Shown: positions 11,320 to 18,787 of the stretch, one piece after another
How positions within the stretch are numbered: the first letter of the stretch is position 1
Layout of the letters: each line of letters starts with the position of its first letter
IMG/VR virus record: IMGVR_UViG_3300045994_000052
Coordinates: 1-20,370 of that record
From: a virus
Direction: 5' to 3' (one strand)
Length of the DNA stretch: 20,370 bases
Position numbers and translations under genes: made by a program
Notes under the pieces: generated by a model
Told to the model about the DNA's origin: nothing
Seen by the model: only the letters and a program-made list of their open reading frames with translations
Database searches by the model: none

Positions 11320-13215
11320 ATGAGTTTACTTGATAAATATAGTTCAACTGAAGTTGTTATCCCAATAGGACAAATTTTAGGCATAACAACATCAGGTGAT
11401 AATGTAACTTTCGTTAAATATGAAGCTGGATTCAGTGTTGTTGATTCGTATAGTCAGCAAGATAATTTGAAGAATACAACTAAGTTCTATGGGCCATTCA
11501 CATATGAAGCTGAGTTCCGAATTGAAGCTAACGGGAATACCGTTAATTATAATGTTTCTGCATTAGGTTCGGTATCTGGCGTTACTATAAGTTCTTCAAA
11601 AACTGTAACCGCAATAGACCCAGCAATAAAAGCGTTTACACAGGTTGATAACGGGGATGTTTATAGTAATGGGGTGCTAGTAAATACCAAATCAAATGTC
11701 CCGGAAATTGCCCTGGCATCCTATCGTGCAATACCTAACAGTACAGCGCGAAAGATTGCTTGGGTTGGCGATAGCAAAACAGCCAATTTATTTTTATCTA
11801 CCGTAGGTGGTGCAGCTACTGTTCTGGGCGGTATTGCTGGAACTGATTATACAATTGACACAATGGGTGCGCCTGGGCTTCCATTTTATAATGTGACTCA
11901 TTTAAACTTAGGAAGCGCAGGGAATACGCTTGCAAATTGGCTAGCCGTAACCTCAGTAAGTGATCTGGTAGCACTTAAAGCATTTAAGCCTGATTTGATC
12001 GTGTTTGCGTATAATGGGACTAATGATGTCCGCTTAGGTGGGTCTTCTGTCTCTGCATTATCAGCATTATTTGTGCAAGCCATTCAGTTATTACAGCTTA
12101 ATCTTGTTGCTACACCTATCATTTTTAAGAGTGCCTCACCTCTTGTTTATGACTCATCAAATAGCCCTGCTTACATTGATGCTCCAAACTCACTTGCTAA
12201 AGTTCAAGGCTATACAGATATTATGCGAGATTCTGCAAAATCATTGATAGGTAGGTTTAGCAGTGTATATGTATTAGAAGTTACGGCTGGCGACAGACCT
12301 ATTTATCCTCAAGGCTGCACTACTTTAGCTAATCACGGTTTGTATTTAGTTGATGCATTACATCCGCAAGGTGAAGGCTACGCAGCTGAGATGCGCGAGG
12401 TTGGTATTTTACTTGGCAGTTATAGCAATACTAACTTTCCTTTTATTAATGCACCTACGCCGTTTGTGTCTCCATTCCCAAAAATGGCAGGGTATCAAGC
12501 AAGTTCAGTATCAACAACACTTGATTACCTAACGTGCCCGCGCGTTCTTGAAGACCCTACTAAGTACAATCTTATTGCTGACGGATTCTGGGTGGCGGGC
12601 GCACCTGGATCATACATGGACTTTGGTTCAGGAACTTCTGCCCAAGCTATTACCTATCTTGGAGTTCCGGCTACTACAGATATTTTTATGCAATACGGTG
12701 TATCTGGCTCTATCGGTACGCAGGGTGATAATGTAGATAATGGTAATGCGGCATTTCTTCACTCTGGCATGACAAAATCAGCTCAAGGTGGAGCTATACG
12801 TTTTCAAGGATTTAGTGCTGGATACCCTAGGCTGCAATATACATATCAAAATGTACGTATATACCGCCCAAGACCAGCAGCGCAGAAAAACCCACTTGAC
12901 CCAAATATAGCAATAGCGATTGCATCAACTGCATTAACTGGTGTATCAGTATCGCAGACAGTTCAGCGCGCTGGTGTAATCGGGGTTATGTCTTGTATTG
13001 CGGCAACAGCGGTAACATCTGGAACGGTTACAGTTGCGGTCAACGGCACTACGATTGCAACGATGACATTTACATCAAGCGTTACAGCGGTTGGTTCTGG
13101 TACATTCTTTACCGCTGCCACGGCTGGTATATTCTTGAATGAGGGGGATGTTATTACTTGCGCATTCACGCTGGTAGGTGGTTCGCTTCCAGTCGTGAGA
13201 CTGAGTAATTCATAA
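11320..13215 (+). CDS. tailspike with SGNH hydrolase domain
   Basis: A 631-residue probable tailspike or fibre. Residues 1 to about 140 look like a virion-anchoring, beta-rich region. Residues about 146-370 form an SGNH/GDSL hydrolase: GDS with nucleophile Ser152, GxxG-like SAGNTLANW, GTND with Asn235, and DALHPQGEGY with Asp345 and His348. SGNH domains in phage tails usually remove O-acetyl groups from capsule or LPS. Residues from about 540 to the end are Ala/Thr/Val-rich beta sequence of the type that trimerises spikes. AAGG lies before the ATG. Composition is richer in G and C than the neighbours (53% and 48% in two sampled 60-base lines, 12361 and 13021), consistent with acquisition or module exchange. 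Confidence 0.85.
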   Translation: MSLLDKYSSTEVVIPIGQILGITTSGDNVTFVKYEAGFSVVDSYSQQDNLKNTTKFYGPFTYEAEFRIEANGNTVNYNVSALGSVSGVTISSSKTVTAIDPAIKAFTQVDNGDVYSNGVLVNTKSNVPEIALASYRAIPNSTARKIAWVGDSKTANLFLSTVGGAATVLGGIAGTDYTIDTMGAPGLPFYNVTHLNLGSAGNTLANWLAVTSVSDLVALKAFKPDLIVFAYNGTNDVRLGGSSVSALSALFVQAIQLLQLNLVATPIIFKSASPLVYDSSNSPAYIDAPNSLAKVQGYTDIMRDSAKSLIGRFSSVYVLEVTAGDRPIYPQGCTTLANHGLYLVDALHPQGEGYAAEMREVGILLGSYSNTNFPFINAPTPFVSPFPKMAGYQASSVSTTLDYLTCPRVLEDPTKYNLIADGFWVAGAPGSYMDFGSGTSAQAITYLGVPATTDIFMQYGVSGSIGTQGDNVDNGNAAFLHSGMTKSAQGGAIRFQGFSAGYPRLQYTYQNVRIYRPRPAAQKNPLDPNIAIAIASTALTGVSVSQTVQRAGVIGVMSCIAATAVTSGTVTVAVNGTTIATMTFTSSVTAVGSGTFFTAATAGIFLNEGDVITCAFTLVGGSLPVVRLSNS

Positions 13216-13275: not shown

Positions 13276-13935
13276 ATGAAAGAATCTGCAAATTTAGTTA
13301 AACAAGCTTATAAACAGTATCAAGATTTTAAATTGGATAATGAATGGAATCTTGAAGGTGAGTATGTTTTAGTTTGTTCTTTGTTTGCAGACCCAGATAA
13401 CATATGGTTTAAAGGAAGTGAGCCGTTTGGATTTATTTGTAGAAATGAAACACGTTTATTTATTGTTTTTCGTGGAACTGAATCAATAGACGATTGGTTA
13501 ACTAATGCTAACGATGAGCAAATAATACATAGTTATGGTAAAGTTCATAAAGGGTATGATGAACTTTACAACAAAATGAGTAATGTTATAAATTTGGCAT
13601 TATCGAAAAATATTGGTTTTGACTTGGTTGTAACTGGTCATAGTTTAGGTGGGGCATTAGCAACATTATGTGCATTTGATTTAGCACATTTAAACCCAAC
13701 ACTCGAAACGTTTGCTTCACCAAGAGTTGGTGATTCTGATTTTGCAGAAAGTTTTAACAACAAAGTTTTGAATCCAATGCGATTTATTAACACAGAAGAT
13801 ATTGTTCCCACATTACCATTGCCAGTGTTAAATAGAAGAACCTACACACATGTGGGCATACCTATTTGTTTTACAAAAAATACAAGATCAATCGTTGGTA
13901 ATCACGATATTGATCTTTATGCAGAAATGCTTTAA
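13276..13935 (+). CDS. class 3 lipase
   Basis: A 219-residue alpha/beta-hydrolase of the lipase class 3 (fungal lipase-like) family. The nucleophile elbow GHSLGG places Ser123, preceded by FDLVVT and followed by ALATLCAFDLA. LFIVFRGTES (61-70) supplies the oxyanion-hole strand, NTEDIVPTLP places Asp175, and GNHDIDLY near the C-terminus places the likely His210. The triad is therefore complete. There is no signal peptide, so the product is either cytoplasmic or carried in the virion. It sits between the tailspike and gp10-like genes. In phages a lipase could attack host outer-membrane lipid or ester-linked surface groups; that role is inference. GTGGGAACAAA precedes the ATG. Confidence 0.85.
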   Translation: MKESANLVKQAYKQYQDFKLDNEWNLEGEYVLVCSLFADPDNIWFKGSEPFGFICRNETRLFIVFRGTESIDDWLTNANDEQIIHSYGKVHKGYDELYNKMSNVINLALSKNIGFDLVVTGHSLGGALATLCAFDLAHLNPTLETFASPRVGDSDFAESFNNKVLNPMRFINTEDIVPTLPLPVLNRRTYTHVGIPICFTKNTRSIVGNHDIDLYAEML

Positions 13936-13948
13936 CAGGAGTTAATTT

Positions 13949-14248
13949 ATGATAAGTGGGCCATTTATACCAAAGTACGGTTCTGGGATTGTAATATCAG
14001 CCACAGCAACCGCCTCGACCGGAGCTGTTGCAAAGGATTCTAAATGTATTAAGGTGTCAAATTCAGGGACAGGGGTTGCATATTTTAGGGTAGGTGACTC
14101 ATTGTTGGGTAACGCCACTAATGCTGATTGTGCGGTGCTTCCTGGCGAATCTAGGATTGTAGTTAAACATATGGATCATACTGTAATTTCTGTAATGGCT
14201 CCTGTGTCGGCAACGTTAAGTATTATTTCAGGCGAAGGTGGTCAGTAA
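13949..14248 (+). CDS. hypothetical beta-rich virion-associated protein
   Basis: A 99-residue protein rich in Ser, Ala, Thr, Val and Gly. Motifs such as SATATASTGAVAKDSKCIKVSN, TGVAYFRVGDS and GESRIVVKHMDHTVISVMAPVSATLSI resemble the small phage proteins that precede gp10-like genes in several podoviruses ('v.n.g...afvr.G......at..d.pv.pg..e.......t.va.i'). It is a single beta-sandwich-like domain and may be a minor structural or decoration protein. The ATG follows AGGAG by eight bases and the gene ends in TAATG with the gp10-like gene. Confidence 0.7.
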   Translation: MISGPFIPKYGSGIVISATATASTGAVAKDSKCIKVSNSGTGVAYFRVGDSLLGNATNADCAVLPGESRIVVKHMDHTVISVMAPVSATLSIISGEGGQ

Positions 14249-17106
14249 TGAGAATACCAGTTCTGAACGGAATTTATACCGACGAAACTTCAAATTTCAG
14301 AACTTCGTATCCTCGTAACTTAATTCCTGTTCCTAAAGCAAATGGAATATCAGAAGGTTATCTAAAACCCGCCGATGGAATTGTCGAGTTTAACAGCGGT
14401 GTTAATAGGCAATATGCTGATGCTATTACAAATTTAAATGCTTTAGCTGCACATAACGGAAAGTTAAACAAACTTATATATGGATATACAAATAGTGTAG
14501 ATTCATCATTGGATGCTTTTCAAGTTACTTTTGACGGTAGTCTTTTTGATATTAACTATTTGGGTGTTGTTACTGGAAAAGTAGTTGGAGCTACACCAGC
14601 ATCGGCGTATCGAGTTGATTTGTATGCGTCTACTAATGTAGATATATTGCAAGGAAGTTCTGTTGTAACAGGTGGGGTTTGGTCTGTTAACGTAACGGGA
14701 ACGGGAACTAAATACGCAAAATTAATAAGAATATCTGATAGTGCTGTAATGGCTGAGGGTTGGACTCAATCAGGTTTATGTCGATCCTATTTAATACCAA
14801 AAACCGATACGTTATATACAGCGTTAAAAGATCGTTGTTTTATGTACGATCAAGCGATTGTATTAATTTCAGCATGTTGTATTAACGATTATGTGACAGC
14901 TAGGTATTTAGCGTTAAGTTTCATAGCAACAATCGCTAGAACTGGAACCAATGTTATTGTTTCAGTTAATGCAAGAAATGGAATGGCATATAACACATAT
15001 GTTAGAACTGAAACAACAGCTTGGGTTTTATACGCATTAAGTTTTTATAAAAAAATATTTCCCACAAGTGATATTAATGTAGTTGTAAATATTGAAATTG
15101 ATACTGTTGCAACACAACTAATGACATATTATATTGTCGCTGCTGGTCAACAACAATTTTCATTTACTGGTGGGTATGGCAAATATTCAGAGGATTACTC
15201 AACATTTGACCCTTCATACACAATAACTGCATCGTTAGCTAATGATAATATAGTTGCGTATTTTGCATTAAAGTTAGCCGGTACAATTAGAAGTAATGCA
15301 ACATATACAGCAACAGCAAATGCAGTAGCTAACTCATTAGTTACAAACTTTTGGGATAGTACAAACAATCGGTTTCATCAAAGTGTACCTGTTAGCGGAA
15401 CTGATATAACTGATTCTTTGATGTGTCATACACTAGGCTCTTTATTCTTACGTGATTACCTAGGAGAAGTTGATAAAACTCAAGCTTCATATTCAGAAAT
15501 TGATTTGTATAAAACAACAGATAGTATAAACGGAATAGTTGGTTATCAGAATTATCTAACTACTCGCGGATACCCTGGTATATCAAATGCTGTTTCTGGG
15601 GAATGTACTTTAACTGTGGGATTAGCTAGATCGGGAAAAGCGCAAAATGAACAAGCTGTTTTTGACATGTTGCCAATTCTTGCTACATTGAATGATTCTG
15701 GCATACCGTATAGTATTTTACGCGACTCTACATTTGCATTTAAAACTTGGTATGGGGCAGCGTCTATTGCTTGGGTGATGATCGCAACTTCGCCCAACGG
15801 ACTATTTGGCGTTAGTGGAGCGTTACCTACATCAGTTATAAATAGTAAGATTTATCCAGGTATCGATCGAGGTGGTATAAATTGGAATGGATATTTATAT
15901 CGAGTTATGGGAAGCAAACTTTGTGCTTTAGATAACTATGGGAATCTGACAATACTAGGTGATGTTGGGGGAAGTACCTCACAAGTTACTATGGATTATT
16001 CTTTTGATAGATTAGCGATAGCATCAGAAGGAAGTTTATATTATTGGAATGGTAAATTATTACAAAAAGTTACCGATCCTGATTTACGAACTGTTTTAGA
16101 TTTTGTGTGGATTGATGGTTATTTTTTAACAACTGATGGAACGTATATTGTTGTAACTGAATTGAACAATCCGTTATCTGTAAGCGTGTTGAAGTACGGT
16201 AGTTCTGAAGTTGATCCTGATAATATAAACAAAGTATTGAAGTATAGAGATCAGTTGCATGTTTTAAACAGGTATACAACTGAGGTATTTCAAAACGTAG
16301 GTGGTTCGTTATTTCCATTTGAACGTGTTAATGGGGCAATGATTCCTATCGGCGCAATCGGAACATATACAGCATGTTTGTATAATGATTATATCGCAAT
16401 CCTTGGAAGTGGAAGAAAGCAACCTCCGTCAATTTACGTTGCGGTTGGTGGACAATATACAAAAATTGCAACAAGAGAAATCGATACAATATTACAAACG
16501 TATGGTGAGTTACGATTATCAAAAGCTGTTTTGGAAGAACGAGTCGATAGGGGTCATGATTTTTTATACGTACATCTTGACGATCAAACTTTAGTTTATG
16601 ATGCAGAATCATCTAAAGTTATGCAAACCCCTATTTGGTTTACGTTTACATCCGGTGATAATTCATTGGGTACATACCGAGCTAGGAATTTAGTTTGGGT
16701 TTATGATAAATGGATATGTGGGGATGTTACCCAAAATAAATTAGGCTATCTAACTGACAACGTGTCTACTCATTATGGGGAAGATTCTTCCTGGGAATTT
16801 AGCACTCAGATATTATATAACGAGGGAGCAGGGGCTATATTTCACAATCTGGAATTGGTGGTTTTGTCTGGAAGATATGATATAACAAAGAATCCAGTCG
16901 TATCAACATCATACAGTAATGACGGTATAGCTTGGAGTAAAGATCGGCCTATTAAGGCGGTTCGTTCTGGTAACACAAATGGTAAATTAGTTTGGTTACA
17001 ACAAGGAAGTATGCGTCATCGTAGAATGCAAAAGTTTAAAGGAACTTCATCTTCCCACATTTCAGTTGCTGCATTGTTGGCAACTGTAGAACCATTGGCA
17101 AACTAA
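14248..17106 (+). CDS. gp10-like packaged-DNA stabilisation protein with large enzymatic-looking insertion
   Basis: A 952-residue protein, twice the length of P22 gp10 (472), which forms a hexameric hub in the P22 tail. Family sequence starts normally (MRIPVLNGIYTDETSNFRTSYP... GYLKPADGIVEF), breaks off near residue 50 and resumes near 537 with PGIDRGGINWNG, then runs through DYSFDRLAIAS, VDPDNINKVLKYRDQLHVLNRYTTEVF, LGSGRKQPPSIYV and REIDTILQTYGELRLS to the end. The intervening ~485 residues hold an Ig-like beta domain (about 105-170) and a helical region (about 180-520) whose paired helices (YDQAIVLISACCIND, RTETTAWVLYALSFY, GECTLTVGLARSG, YGAASIAWVMIATS) resemble an alpha/alpha-toroid glycosidase. 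So a depolymerase may be built into the hub. It overlaps neighbours through TAATG at both ends. Confidence 0.88.
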   Translation: MRIPVLNGIYTDETSNFRTSYPRNLIPVPKANGISEGYLKPADGIVEFNSGVNRQYADAITNLNALAAHNGKLNKLIYGYTNSVDSSLDAFQVTFDGSLFDINYLGVVTGKVVGATPASAYRVDLYASTNVDILQGSSVVTGGVWSVNVTGTGTKYAKLIRISDSAVMAEGWTQSGLCRSYLIPKTDTLYTALKDRCFMYDQAIVLISACCINDYVTARYLALSFIATIARTGTNVIVSVNARNGMAYNTYVRTETTAWVLYALSFYKKIFPTSDINVVVNIEIDTVATQLMTYYIVAAGQQQFSFTGGYGKYSEDYSTFDPSYTITASLANDNIVAYFALKLAGTIRSNATYTATANAVANSLVTNFWDSTNNRFHQSVPVSGTDITDSLMCHTLGSLFLRDYLGEVDKTQASYSEIDLYKTTDSINGIVGYQNYLTTRGYPGISNAVSGECTLTVGLARSGKAQNEQAVFDMLPILATLNDSGIPYSILRDSTFAFKTWYGAASIAWVMIATSPNGLFGVSGALPTSVINSKIYPGIDRGGINWNGYLYRVMGSKLCALDNYGNLTILGDVGGSTSQVTMDYSFDRLAIASEGSLYYWNGKLLQKVTDPDLRTVLDFVWIDGYFLTTDGTYIVVTELNNPLSVSVLKYGSSEVDPDNINKVLKYRDQLHVLNRYTTEVFQNVGGSLFPFERVNGAMIPIGAIGTYTACLYNDYIAILGSGRKQPPSIYVAVGGQYTKIATREIDTILQTYGELRLSKAVLEERVDRGHDFLYVHLDDQTLVYDAESSKVMQTPIWFTFTSGDNSLGTYRARNLVWVYDKWICGDVTQNKLGYLTDNVSTHYGEDSSWEFSTQILYNEGAGAIFHNLELVVLSGRYDITKNPVVSTSYSNDGIAWSKDRPIKAVRSGNTNGKLVWLQQGSMRHRRMQKFKGTSSSHISVAALLATVEPLAN

Positions 17107-17405
17107 TGGCAACAAGATTTACATTAACAAGACATCAACTTCAAGAGTTTATACCGAACTATCAAGCGGTATTAACTTTTGAAAACTTAATCAAATATGT
17201 AAATGATAATAGCCCTGAAGGGATTGCAATTATAAATGAAACTTTAACTTCTTTGCAAACTCAGATAAAAACAAACAATGCTCAGATAGCATCATTAAAT
17301 CAAACAATAAACGATATGAATACTAATCTTAGTTTAGCTTTTGCTGGTTATCAAGAATCATTATCACAAAGTAACGATTTGCAATTATTAATAAAACGGA
17401 GATAA
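17106..17405 (+). CDS. coiled-coil protein, tail needle candidate
   Basis: A 99-residue protein with five perfect heptads at residues 47-78 (a positions Leu47, Ile54, Ile61, Ile68, Leu75), which predicts a parallel coiled coil, probably trimeric. The N-terminal 45 residues are a separate short region (MATRFTLTRHQLQEFIPNY) and the C-terminus ends in basic LIKRR. In P22 the gene after gp10 encodes the trimeric coiled-coil needle gp26 (233 residues) that plugs the tail. This protein holds the same position but is much shorter, so it may be a reduced needle or only part of a plug. The assignment comes from synteny and coil, not sequence match. Confidence 0.6.
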   Translation: MATRFTLTRHQLQEFIPNYQAVLTFENLIKYVNDNSPEGIAIINETLTSLQTQIKTNNAQIASLNQTINDMNTNLSLAFAGYQESLSQSNDLQLLIKRR

Positions 17406-17407
17406 AT

Positions 17408-17746
17408 ATGTCATTAAATTTTTCGCTTTTATTTTCTTCTAAATTAGTTAACAACGCTGCTGCTGATCTTATTTATACGGTTCCTGCATTCTCTACTTTA
17501 CGTAATATGAAAGTTAGATTTTCAAATTCGACAGCAACAGCGGCTACTATAAAGGTATGGACAGTTCCATCTACAGGAGGCGGGGCTGGCCCATTGAATT
17601 TATCACTTCCCGCAGTATCTATTCCAGCTCTATCATACATTGATGTAGATTTGCCAGTTATTGATGCAGGGGGTATGATACAGGCACAGGCCGGTACTGC
17701 ATCTGCAATAGCGGTATTTCATATGGATGGACTATTACAAACATAA
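17408..17746 (+). CDS. hypothetical beta-rich protein
   Basis: A 112-residue low-charge protein with a GGAG before its ATG, directly after the coiled-coil gene. It has the pattern of a small beta-sandwich: LIYTVPAFSTLRNMKVRFSNSTATAATIKVWTVP, a Gly-rich loop, then LSYIDVDLPVIDAGGMIQAQAGTASAIAVFHMDG. That matches small phage proteins of the type 'lytvp.g....i....~tn...~~~tv.vw~vp.g' found among tail or head-decoration proteins. It may form the knob or tip of the needle, or a decoration; not identified further. Confidence 0.65.
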   Translation: MSLNFSLLFSSKLVNNAAADLIYTVPAFSTLRNMKVRFSNSTATAATIKVWTVPSTGGGAGPLNLSLPAVSIPALSYIDVDLPVIDAGGMIQAQAGTASAIAVFHMDGLLQT

Positions 17747-17750
17747 TATT

Positions 17751-18332
17751 ATGAAAAATTTTTTGAAATTATTAGACGGGGCATTGGTTAATCCATTACT
17801 TCTTGCCATTCATAGATTTGATAAAAGTCGTGGTGATATTTGGAAAGAGGATACATATTTGAGGGATTATCCACAAGGGCCATTTGGAGACACCGAATCT
17901 GTAATTCTAAGGTTCCCCCCTCGGTCTGTTTTAGAAACAAAGGAAGAACTGAAGAATCATCTTTCTACATTCGATCAACATGAGAATGTAGATCAGGATA
18001 TTTTTAAATTATTACCAGAGGCCAGACTTTTGATATTTGGACTTATGGCATTGGTTCAAGGTGAACGATTAGGTCGGTGTATTATCAACAAGCTTAAGCC
18101 CGGGGGTAAAATATATCGCCATGCTGACACAAAAGACCATGCTGAATATTGGGATAGGTTTCATATCGTTTTACAGTCTGAACCTGGATCGATGTTTTAT
18201 TGTGATGACGAGCAAGTGATGATGCAAACTGGTGAAATTTGGTGGTTTAATAACGCATTAGAACACGAAGTTATTAATAACTCATCCGAAGATCGTATTC
18301 ATTTGGTAGTTGACATAAGAACGAGTAAGTAA
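17751..18332 (+). CDS. 2OG-Fe(II) oxygenase, Asp/Asn beta-hydroxylase-like
   Basis: A 193-residue protein of the aspartyl/asparaginyl beta-hydroxylase family. The iron site can be read as His124 and Asp126 in IYRHADTKDH, and His172 in NNALEHEV; Arg182 in DRIHLVVDIR would bind 2-oxoglutarate. The family normally hydroxylates Asp, Asn or similar residues in proteins or small molecules using Fe(II), O2 and 2-oxoglutarate. GRCIINKLKPGGKI and GEIWWFNNALEHEV are typical framing strands. It ends in a TAATG overlap with the GNAT gene, so the two are expressed together. Start is ATG 17751; an ATG at 17727 inside the previous gene is possible. A target among virion proteins is an attractive guess only. 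Confidence 0.8.
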   Translation: MKNFLKLLDGALVNPLLLAIHRFDKSRGDIWKEDTYLRDYPQGPFGDTESVILRFPPRSVLETKEELKNHLSTFDQHENVDQDIFKLLPEARLLIFGLMALVQGERLGRCIINKLKPGGKIYRHADTKDHAEYWDRFHIVLQSEPGSMFYCDDEQVMMQTGEIWWFNNALEHEVINNSSEDRIHLVVDIRTSK

Positions 18333-18787
18333 TGATAACTTTCGCTAATGAATCTTTTGAAAAGACATTACCTGAGTTTGAACCGCTCCTTCATACTCAT
18401 TATGAGGAATTGGCTTTAAACCAAGATAAGGTTCCACTATCTCCACAATATAGTGTCTATTTTGATCGTGAGCGAATGGGACAATTATTGTTTATAACAG
18501 CTAGGGAAGATGGAACTATAATTGGGTATTTTATCGGCTTTATATCCCCTGGACTTCATTACTCTACTTGTTTAACATGTCAAATGGATATTTTCTATAT
18601 TAAAAAAGAATATAGAAATGGAAGGGCAGGTATCAAACTATTTCAATTTATTGAAAAAGAATTGAAACGGAGAGGTGTGCAACGATGGTTTGTGGGATCA
18701 AAACTTCATGCTGATGCTAGTTCGTTATTCAAATATTTAAAATTTAGCCCTGTTGAAACTTTTTATACAAAATGGATAGGTGATTAA
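18332..18787 (+). CDS. GNAT-family acetyltransferase
   Basis: A 151-residue GNAT N-acetyltransferase. The acetyl-CoA pyrophosphate loop is visible as YRNGRAG (residues 94-100) after the beta4 strand QMDIFYI, followed by the alpha3 helix IKLFQFIEKELKRRG. GTIIGYFIGFIS supplies the earlier strands and KLHADASSLFKYLKFSPVETFYTK is the C-terminal GNAT helix-strand. It transfers acetyl from acetyl-CoA to an amine; the substrate is unknown. It sits between the hydroxylase-like gene and the ejection protein genes, in the same position as small acetyltransferases found in many P22-like tail modules. Confidence 0.85.
   Translation: MITFANESFEKTLPEFEPLLHTHYEELALNQDKVPLSPQYSVYFDRERMGQLLFITAREDGTIIGYFIGFISPGLHYSTCLTCQMDIFYIKKEYRNGRAGIKLFQFIEKELKRRGVQRWFVGSKLHADASSLFKYLKFSPVETFYTKWIGD

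What the first reader, a model, noticed from the sequence alone, without database searches (positions are those of the whole stretch)
14398..15856. Enzyme-like ~485-residue insertion inside the gp10 tail-hub protein
The gp10 family sequence reads continuously from PADGIVEF (around residue 48) to PGIDRGGINWNG (around residue 537) if the middle is removed. The middle looks like an Ig-like beta domain followed by an alpha/alpha-toroid domain with repeated helix pairs and acidic residues in conserved-looking positions (YDQA near 200, RTETTAW near 253-259, GECT near 451). This would place a putative glycan depolymerase in the six-fold hub of a P22-like tail rather than in a spike, a layout I do not know to be described for P22.
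Basis: partly seen in the sequence, partly recalled or inferred. Interest (0 to 1): 0.85.

Follow-up and report, generated by a model that had tools for sequence, protein, structure and literature searches.

The report
Fibre-tip domain inserted in tail hub
In this P22-like phage the ring protein at the base of the tail has swallowed a whole tail-fibre tip that resembles a sugar-cutting enzyme but has lost most of that family's candidate active-site residues, so it more likely grips host sugars than cuts them; this layout was not found in any of the roughly 150 nearest relatives or 60 isolate phages checked.

Summary
ORF 14248..17106 (952 aa) is a P22 gp10 homologue interrupted at residues 51-536 (nt 14398-15855). 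Relatives read straight through this loop (GIVxFGTG|PGIDRGG); none of the 80 gp10s closest by hub sequence alone, nor 60 sampled isolate phages, carries anything there. The insert is a two-domain cassette, Ig-like sandwich plus (alpha/alpha)6 toroid, homologous to the C-terminal tip of tail fibres (phrog_13714, E 2e-31; Microbacterium and Thermus phages, E. coli prophages) and to exported bacterial proteins. AlphaFold2 and Foldseek confirm the toroid. The depolymerase reading is weakened: the family's motifs sit at the N-termini of the six inner helices, and this copy has lost 9 of 17 near-invariant residues (EHNxD to NDNxV, LD..W to LM..L, WxEG to SxEC) while other members lose 0-3, apart from two divergent outliers. 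Best explanation: a horizontally acquired fibre tip, now a hub-borne glycan/receptor-binding module, probably catalytically dead. An active enzyme with a rewired site is not excluded. Domain insertion into podoviral hub propellers has precedent (T7 gp12, SU10 gp17); a toroid there appears new. New variant of a known kind.

The parts
14248..14397 (+). gp10 hub, N-terminal part (residues 1-50), up to the loop GIVEFNSG
   Evidence: Aligned to uninterrupted gp10 homologues; pairs with P22/Sf6 gp10 residues 5-53
14398..14520 (+). Linker at the start of the insert (residues 51-91), mostly low confidence in the model
   Evidence: pLDDT < 50 over the first 41 residues of the insert model; phrog_7032 match begins only at residue 103
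14521..14763 (+). Ig-like beta sandwich (residues ~92-172)
   Evidence: Strands in AF2 model; matches Ig-like repeats preceding the toroid in tail fibres
14815..15855 (+). (alpha/alpha)6 toroid domain (residues ~190-536)
   Evidence: AF2 pLDDT 79, pTM 0.77; Foldseek 243 PDB matches at E <= 1e-3, top ones mostly (a/a)6 toroid enzymes; phrog_13714 E 2e-31
14845..14850 (+). Y200-D201, motif at start of inner helix 1 (retained)
   Evidence: Y 21/21 and D 20/21 non-redundant family members
15004..15024 (+). R253..W259, motif at start of inner helix 2 (R and W retained, G255 replaced by E)
15241..15255 (+). N332-D333-N334-I-V336, position of the family motif E-H-N-[IV]-D at start of inner helix 3 (E, H and D lost)
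   Evidence: E, H, D each 21/21 in other non-redundant members; leave-one-out test
15418..15435 (+). L391-M392..L396, position of family motif L-D-x-x-[ST]-W at start of inner helix 4 (D and W lost)
   Evidence: D and W each 21/21 in other members
15595..15606 (+). S450-G-E452-C453, position of family motif W-x-E-G at start of inner helix 5 (E retained, W and G lost)
   Evidence: W, E, G each 21/21 in other members
15856..17106 (+). gp10 hub, C-terminal part (residues 537-952), beta-propeller region
   Evidence: PF11134 89 bits, residues 538-939; homologous to P22 gp10 / Sf6 gp8 solved structures

Best explanation
The protein is a P22-type gp10 tail hub into whose N-terminal loop (the 'FGTG-PGIDRGG' loop, just before the predicted propeller strands begin) a complete tail-fibre-tip cassette, Ig-like spacer plus (alpha/alpha)6 toroid, has been inserted in frame. 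By analogy with other hubs of this kind the site should face outwards, so each virion would carry six copies around the hub. The toroid descends from a family of putative glycan-active fibre tips and exported bacterial proteins, but has lost most of the residues that line the predicted cleft in its relatives. It most likely works as a glycan- or receptor-binding module built into the hub, adding contact to the host surface close to the DNA exit channel, and no longer (or only weakly) as a depolymerase. Shown here: the insertion, its edges, its homology, its fold, its absence from relatives, and the residue losses. Inferred: outward orientation, six copies, glycan binding, loss of catalysis.
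For: Uninterrupted gp10 in all close relatives checked and in 60 sampled isolate phages. Insert matches tail-fibre PHROGs and lies at the C-terminus of tail proteins in Microbacterium and Thermus phages and E. coli prophages. No toroid match elsewhere in 20 related phage records, so acquisition rather than shared ancestry is likely. AF2/Foldseek fold, with best viral match F9VHN7 (TM 0.67, E 1e-20), which by its 585 aa length and my own knowledge is the Thermus phage TMA family member already found by sequence. All six family motifs lie at the N-termini of alternate (inner) helices starting at 199, 254, 331, 391, 451 and 504, where (a/a)6 enzymes have their cleft. The window copy deviates at 9 of 17 near-invariant positions; other members 0-3, with two more divergent exceptions. 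Codon usage matches the genome and the frame is intact. P22-type neighbours: portal, gp4, gp7.
Against: No binding or enzyme assay is known to me for any member of the family. D201, R253, D386 and E452 are retained, so some catalysis is possible. The full-length model was poor (pLDDT 56, pTM 0.41), so orientation on the hub is not shown. The virus is known from one metagenomic contig.
Confidence: 0.55

Rival explanations
1. The inserted toroid is still an active glycan-degrading enzyme, with an active site re-built from the retained D201, R253, D386, E452 and the new D333/E255, giving a depolymerase in the hub.
For: Fold is shared with glycoside hydrolases GH76, GH125, GH94, GH100 and with sugar epimerases (GH family numbers partly from my own knowledge of the entries); some conserved acidic residues are kept; domain is full length and confidently folded.
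Against: E332, H333, D336, D392, W396 and W450, invariant in 21 non-redundant members, are all replaced; the family itself has no demonstrated activity and matches no Pfam or NCBIfam family.
Confidence: 0.2
2. The insert is a purely structural decoration of the hub (steric or stabilising, or a dock for another tail protein) without glycan recognition.
For: Cleft residues are lost; the protein in the tail-needle position is very short here (99 aa against 129-636 in relatives), so tail composition has changed.
Against: The family occurs mainly at fibre tips, the usual place of receptor recognition, and in exported proteins.
Confidence: 0.15
3. Assembly chimera: a fibre gene joined into gp10 during metagenome assembly.
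For: Only one record; no second virus with the same junctions was found.
Against: Both junctions are in frame at one loop, no repeat at the junctions that would explain mis-joining, codon usage and GC of insert equal the flanks.
Confidence: 0.07

Closest known systems
P22 gp10 / Sf6 gp8 tail hub (Phage_stabilise, PF11134; PDB 8tvr, 8u10, 7sg7)
   Same: Hub sequence, P22-type neighbours (portal, gp4, gp7), position between tail genes and ejection genes
   Different: Here interrupted by 486 residues after residue 50; known members are about 470 aa without it
Toroid-tipped tail fibres (phrog_13714 / 7032 / 37493; Microbacterium phages RubyRalph gp42 and Big4 gp73, Thermus phages TMA and phiYS40, E. 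coli P2-like prophage fibres)
   Same: Ig-like domain followed by the same toroid, 23-30% identity, same six helix-start motifs
   Different: There usually C-terminal in a fibre and with the EHNxD / LDxxSW / WxEG motifs intact; here internal in the hub and the motifs largely lost
SU10 gp17 and T7 gp12 nozzle proteins
   Same: Extra domains carried in loops of the hub beta-propeller (SU10: Ig-like nozzle domains between blades 2 and 3, fibre-dock loop on blade 1, PMC9509320; T7: nozzle tip from a blade 3 loop, PMC6702177)
   Different: No toroid; different loop as far as can be told; SU10 and T7 nozzle domains form the tip of the DNA-delivery channel
(alpha/alpha)6 toroid glycosidases and epimerases (GH76, GH125, GH94, GH100, AGE)
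   Same: Overall fold (Foldseek E 2e-7 to 2e-5, TM 0.4-0.6)
   Different: No sequence-family membership; candidate catalytic residues lost
Phage depolymerase survey DepoScope (PMC11326577)
   Same: Reports alpha/alpha toroid as a rare (11 of 984) candidate polysaccharide-degrading fold in phage proteins
   Different: Based on sequence and fold screening only; no hub location in the passages read

Membership tests
P22 gp10 (Phage_stabilise) | Profile match above the curated cut-off | tested here: met
   PF11134 89.3 bits against 25
P22 gp10 (Phage_stabilise) | P22-type gene neighbourhood (portal, gp4, gp7, injection proteins) | tested here: met
   PF16510, PF11650, PF25688 above cut-off; PF16928 weak
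P22 gp10 (Phage_stabilise) | Uninterrupted chain of about 470 aa | tested here: not met
   952 aa with insert at residues 51-536; about 150 nearest relatives uninterrupted
Toroid fibre-tip family (phrog_13714) | Profile match over Ig-like plus toroid | tested here: met
   E 2.2e-31, profile positions 220-620 of 631
Toroid fibre-tip family (phrog_13714) | Conserved cleft motifs YDQA, R-G-AW, EHNxD, LDxxSW, WxEG | tested here: not met
   9 of 17 near-invariant positions replaced; others mostly 0-3
Toroid fibre-tip family (phrog_13714) | C-terminal in a tail fibre | tested here: not met
   Internal in gp10; most members end 8-55 residues after the domain, except L050 and L055-L060
(alpha/alpha)6 toroid glycoside hydrolase | Fold | tested here: met
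   Foldseek against PDB
(alpha/alpha)6 toroid glycoside hydrolase | Sequence membership of a described GH or PL family | tested here: not met
   No Pfam or NCBIfam family for insert or relatives
(alpha/alpha)6 toroid glycoside hydrolase | Catalytic activity | not testable with these tools
   needs an assay
Hub propeller with inserted domain (T7 gp12 / SU10 gp17 type) | Extra domain emerging from a propeller loop on the outer side | tested here: inconclusive
   Predicted strands of the propeller begin at residue 541, right after the insert, but the full-length model is poor

The most novel reading that the evidence does not exclude
A P22-like phage with a working glycan-processing toroid enzyme, its active site rewired, built into six copies of the tail hub, so that polysaccharide degradation and channel opening sit in one polypeptide.
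Probability: 0.18. Interest if true: 0.75.

Novelty: new variant of a known kind. Interest (0 to 1): 0.5.

Why it matters
Receptor recognition in short-tailed phages is normally carried by separate fibres or spikes docked on the hub, which makes host-range switching easy. Here a fibre tip has become part of one of the most conserved tail proteins. If it binds receptor, surface sensing and channel gating lie in one chain, a simple system for testing how receptor contact is passed to the hub. It also points to a widespread, unnamed toroid family (no Pfam model) at fibre tips and in exported bacterial proteins for which I found no tested activity, with this copy as a natural variant that has lost the cleft motifs.

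Tried and rejected
Single-protein scan of viral contigs with the toroid found no close relative. A first genome contigs attempt with the diverse alignment failed for lack of a conserved stretch and was repeated with a closer set. Mixed gp10-plus-toroid alignments for the full chain were misaligned by MAFFT; the best one still gave a poor full-length model, so domain orientation is not argued from it. Considered and dropped: intein or intron (insert is homologous to tail-fibre tips and stays in the chain), duplication-mediated insertion (no junction repeats; only a faint GVNR / GIDR resemblance at the two edges), recent transfer from a genome of different composition. PDB sequence searches with the insert or a family profile gave nothing significant. 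Literature searches for a toroid in a tail hub found none in the held library.

Full report
Observation. The window is a 20,370-base IMG/VR virus record. ORF 14248..17106 codes for 952 aa. Pfam Phage_stabilise (P22 gp10) matches only residues 538-939, and PHROG 578 matches 540-949 plus a second stretch. The closest relatives, 51-56% identical over the shared part, are about 465-478 aa long and read 'GYLRPADGIVxFGTGPGxDRGGINWNG' through the place where this protein has its extra block. Neighbouring genes are of P22 type: portal, gp4, gp7, with a weak match to the injection translocase.

Not the family norm. Eighty IMG/VR gp10s nearest to a short-gp10 alignment all lack the insert. Since that ranking could disfavour interrupted proteins, I repeated the scan with only the part after the insert, the window's own sequence first. 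Of the 80 best (partly the same contigs), 73 have the normal 15-16 residues between the GY[LF]RP motif and the start of the match; the other 7 failed the motif pattern and are uninterrupted by eye. In 219 isolate-phage records with gp10, 60 sampled down the ranking show the match as one piece, except one split hit without extra length; a few weak hits do not reach the N-terminal part. The scans keep the best 80 of more than 580 relatives, so rare insertions further away are not excluded. One relative (L008) has a four-residue extension in this loop, so the loop tolerates length change.

What the insert is. It matches three PHROG families of tail-fibre-like proteins and, by tblastn, proteins of Microbacterium and Thermus phages and a phage-like E. 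coli plasmid. Alignment scans gave 41 viral loci and 24 genome loci. The domain is usually C-terminal in fibres, 8-55 residues from the end, preceded by an Ig-like repeat. In L050 and L055-L060 it is internal in 1.0-1.7 kaa tail proteins. In several bacterial genomes (Spirochaetes, Conexibacter, Actinoplanes relatives, Saccharibacteria) it forms proteins that look exported. No Pfam or NCBIfam family covers it and no solved structure matches by sequence. No toroid match was found elsewhere in 20 related phage records.

Fold. AlphaFold2 on the insert with 22 relatives gave mean pLDDT 79 and pTM 0.77: a low-confidence first 41 residues, a beta sandwich at gp10 residues ~92-172, then a helical toroid. 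Foldseek against PDB gave 243 matches at E <= 1e-3; the listed ones are mostly (alpha/alpha)6 proteins, GH76 first at 2.4e-7, then mannose isomerase/AGE epimerases, exo-mannosidase, GH94 phosphorylases and alkaline invertase, besides complement C5 and linalool dehydratase. The best viral match is F9VHN7 (585 aa), TM 0.67, E 1e-20, which I take to be the Thermus phage TMA protein already found by sequence.

Residues. In 21 non-redundant phage members the near-invariant positions fall in motifs. On the model these motifs lie at the starts of alternate helices beginning at residues 199, 254, 331, 391, 451 and 504, that is, at one end of the six inner helices, where enzymes of this fold have their cleft (established knowledge). 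The window copy keeps Y200, D201, R253, W259, D386, E452 and W509, but has E332N, H333D, D336V, D392M, W396L, W450S, G453C, G255E and G379S. In a leave-one-out test over 34 sequences including bacterial ones, it deviates at 9 of 17 positions conserved in at least 90% of the others; 31 of 33 others deviate at 0-3, L083 at 5 of 20 and the highly divergent L076 at 9 of 23. Search bias is limited: the viral pattern allowed the window's own letters (N, D, V) at the EHNxD site, and loci found by direct tblastn show the same motifs. The genome scan required either STEHNI or the D386/D392 motif, so for those loci one of the two motifs is selected for.

Interpretation. [quoted passage not shown] In SU10 and T7 the hub propeller carries extra domains in loops and a fibre dock on its outer side (PMC9509320, PMC6702177). 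By that analogy the insert should face outwards in six copies; this is inference, since the full-length model is poor (pLDDT 56). With the cleft residues gone, a binding role is more likely than depolymerisation, but unproven. Two neighbours fit a changed adsorption apparatus: the protein at the tail-needle position is reduced to 99 aa where relatives have 129-636, and an SGNH-like tail protein and a class 3 lipase lie just upstream.

Artefact check. GC, GC3 and codon usage of the insert match the rest of gp10 and of the phage; no repeat marks the junctions. Read-level proof is lacking.

Verdict. It is a new variant of a known kind: domain insertion into a podoviral tail hub, with a fibre-tip toroid as the new passenger.

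Noticed in passing
window 11320-13215: 631-aa protein upstream of gp10 with SGNH/GDSL hydrolase motifs (GDSK, GTND, DALHPQG; PF13472 E 8e-5, below cut-off), a candidate esterase spike.
   Followed up: partly
window 13276-13935: Class 3 lipase (PF01764, 97 bits) inside the tail gene cluster, shortly before gp10.
   Followed up: no
window 17106-17405: Protein in the tail-needle (gp26) position is only 99 aa, anchor plus coiled region; relatives carry 129-636 aa with large C-terminal domains.
   Followed up: partly
window 17727-18329 and 18332-18784: Aspartyl/asparaginyl beta-hydroxylase (PF05118) and GNAT acetyltransferase between tail and ejection genes; Pseudomonas phage PfAn1 (L010) has a similar run there (acetyltransferase and small unknown genes).
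   Followed up: no
L066-L074, L077-L084: Exported-looking bacterial homologues of the toroid domain with intact EHNxD motif and no Pfam family; unexplored candidate glycan-active enzymes.
   Followed up: partly
L055-L060 and L050: Same toroid domain internal in 1.0-1.7 kaa tail proteins of other phages, a second case of a non-terminal position.
   Followed up: partly
L020:2265-6035: Fibre with a PhoD-like phosphodiesterase domain followed by the toroid tip.
   Followed up: no
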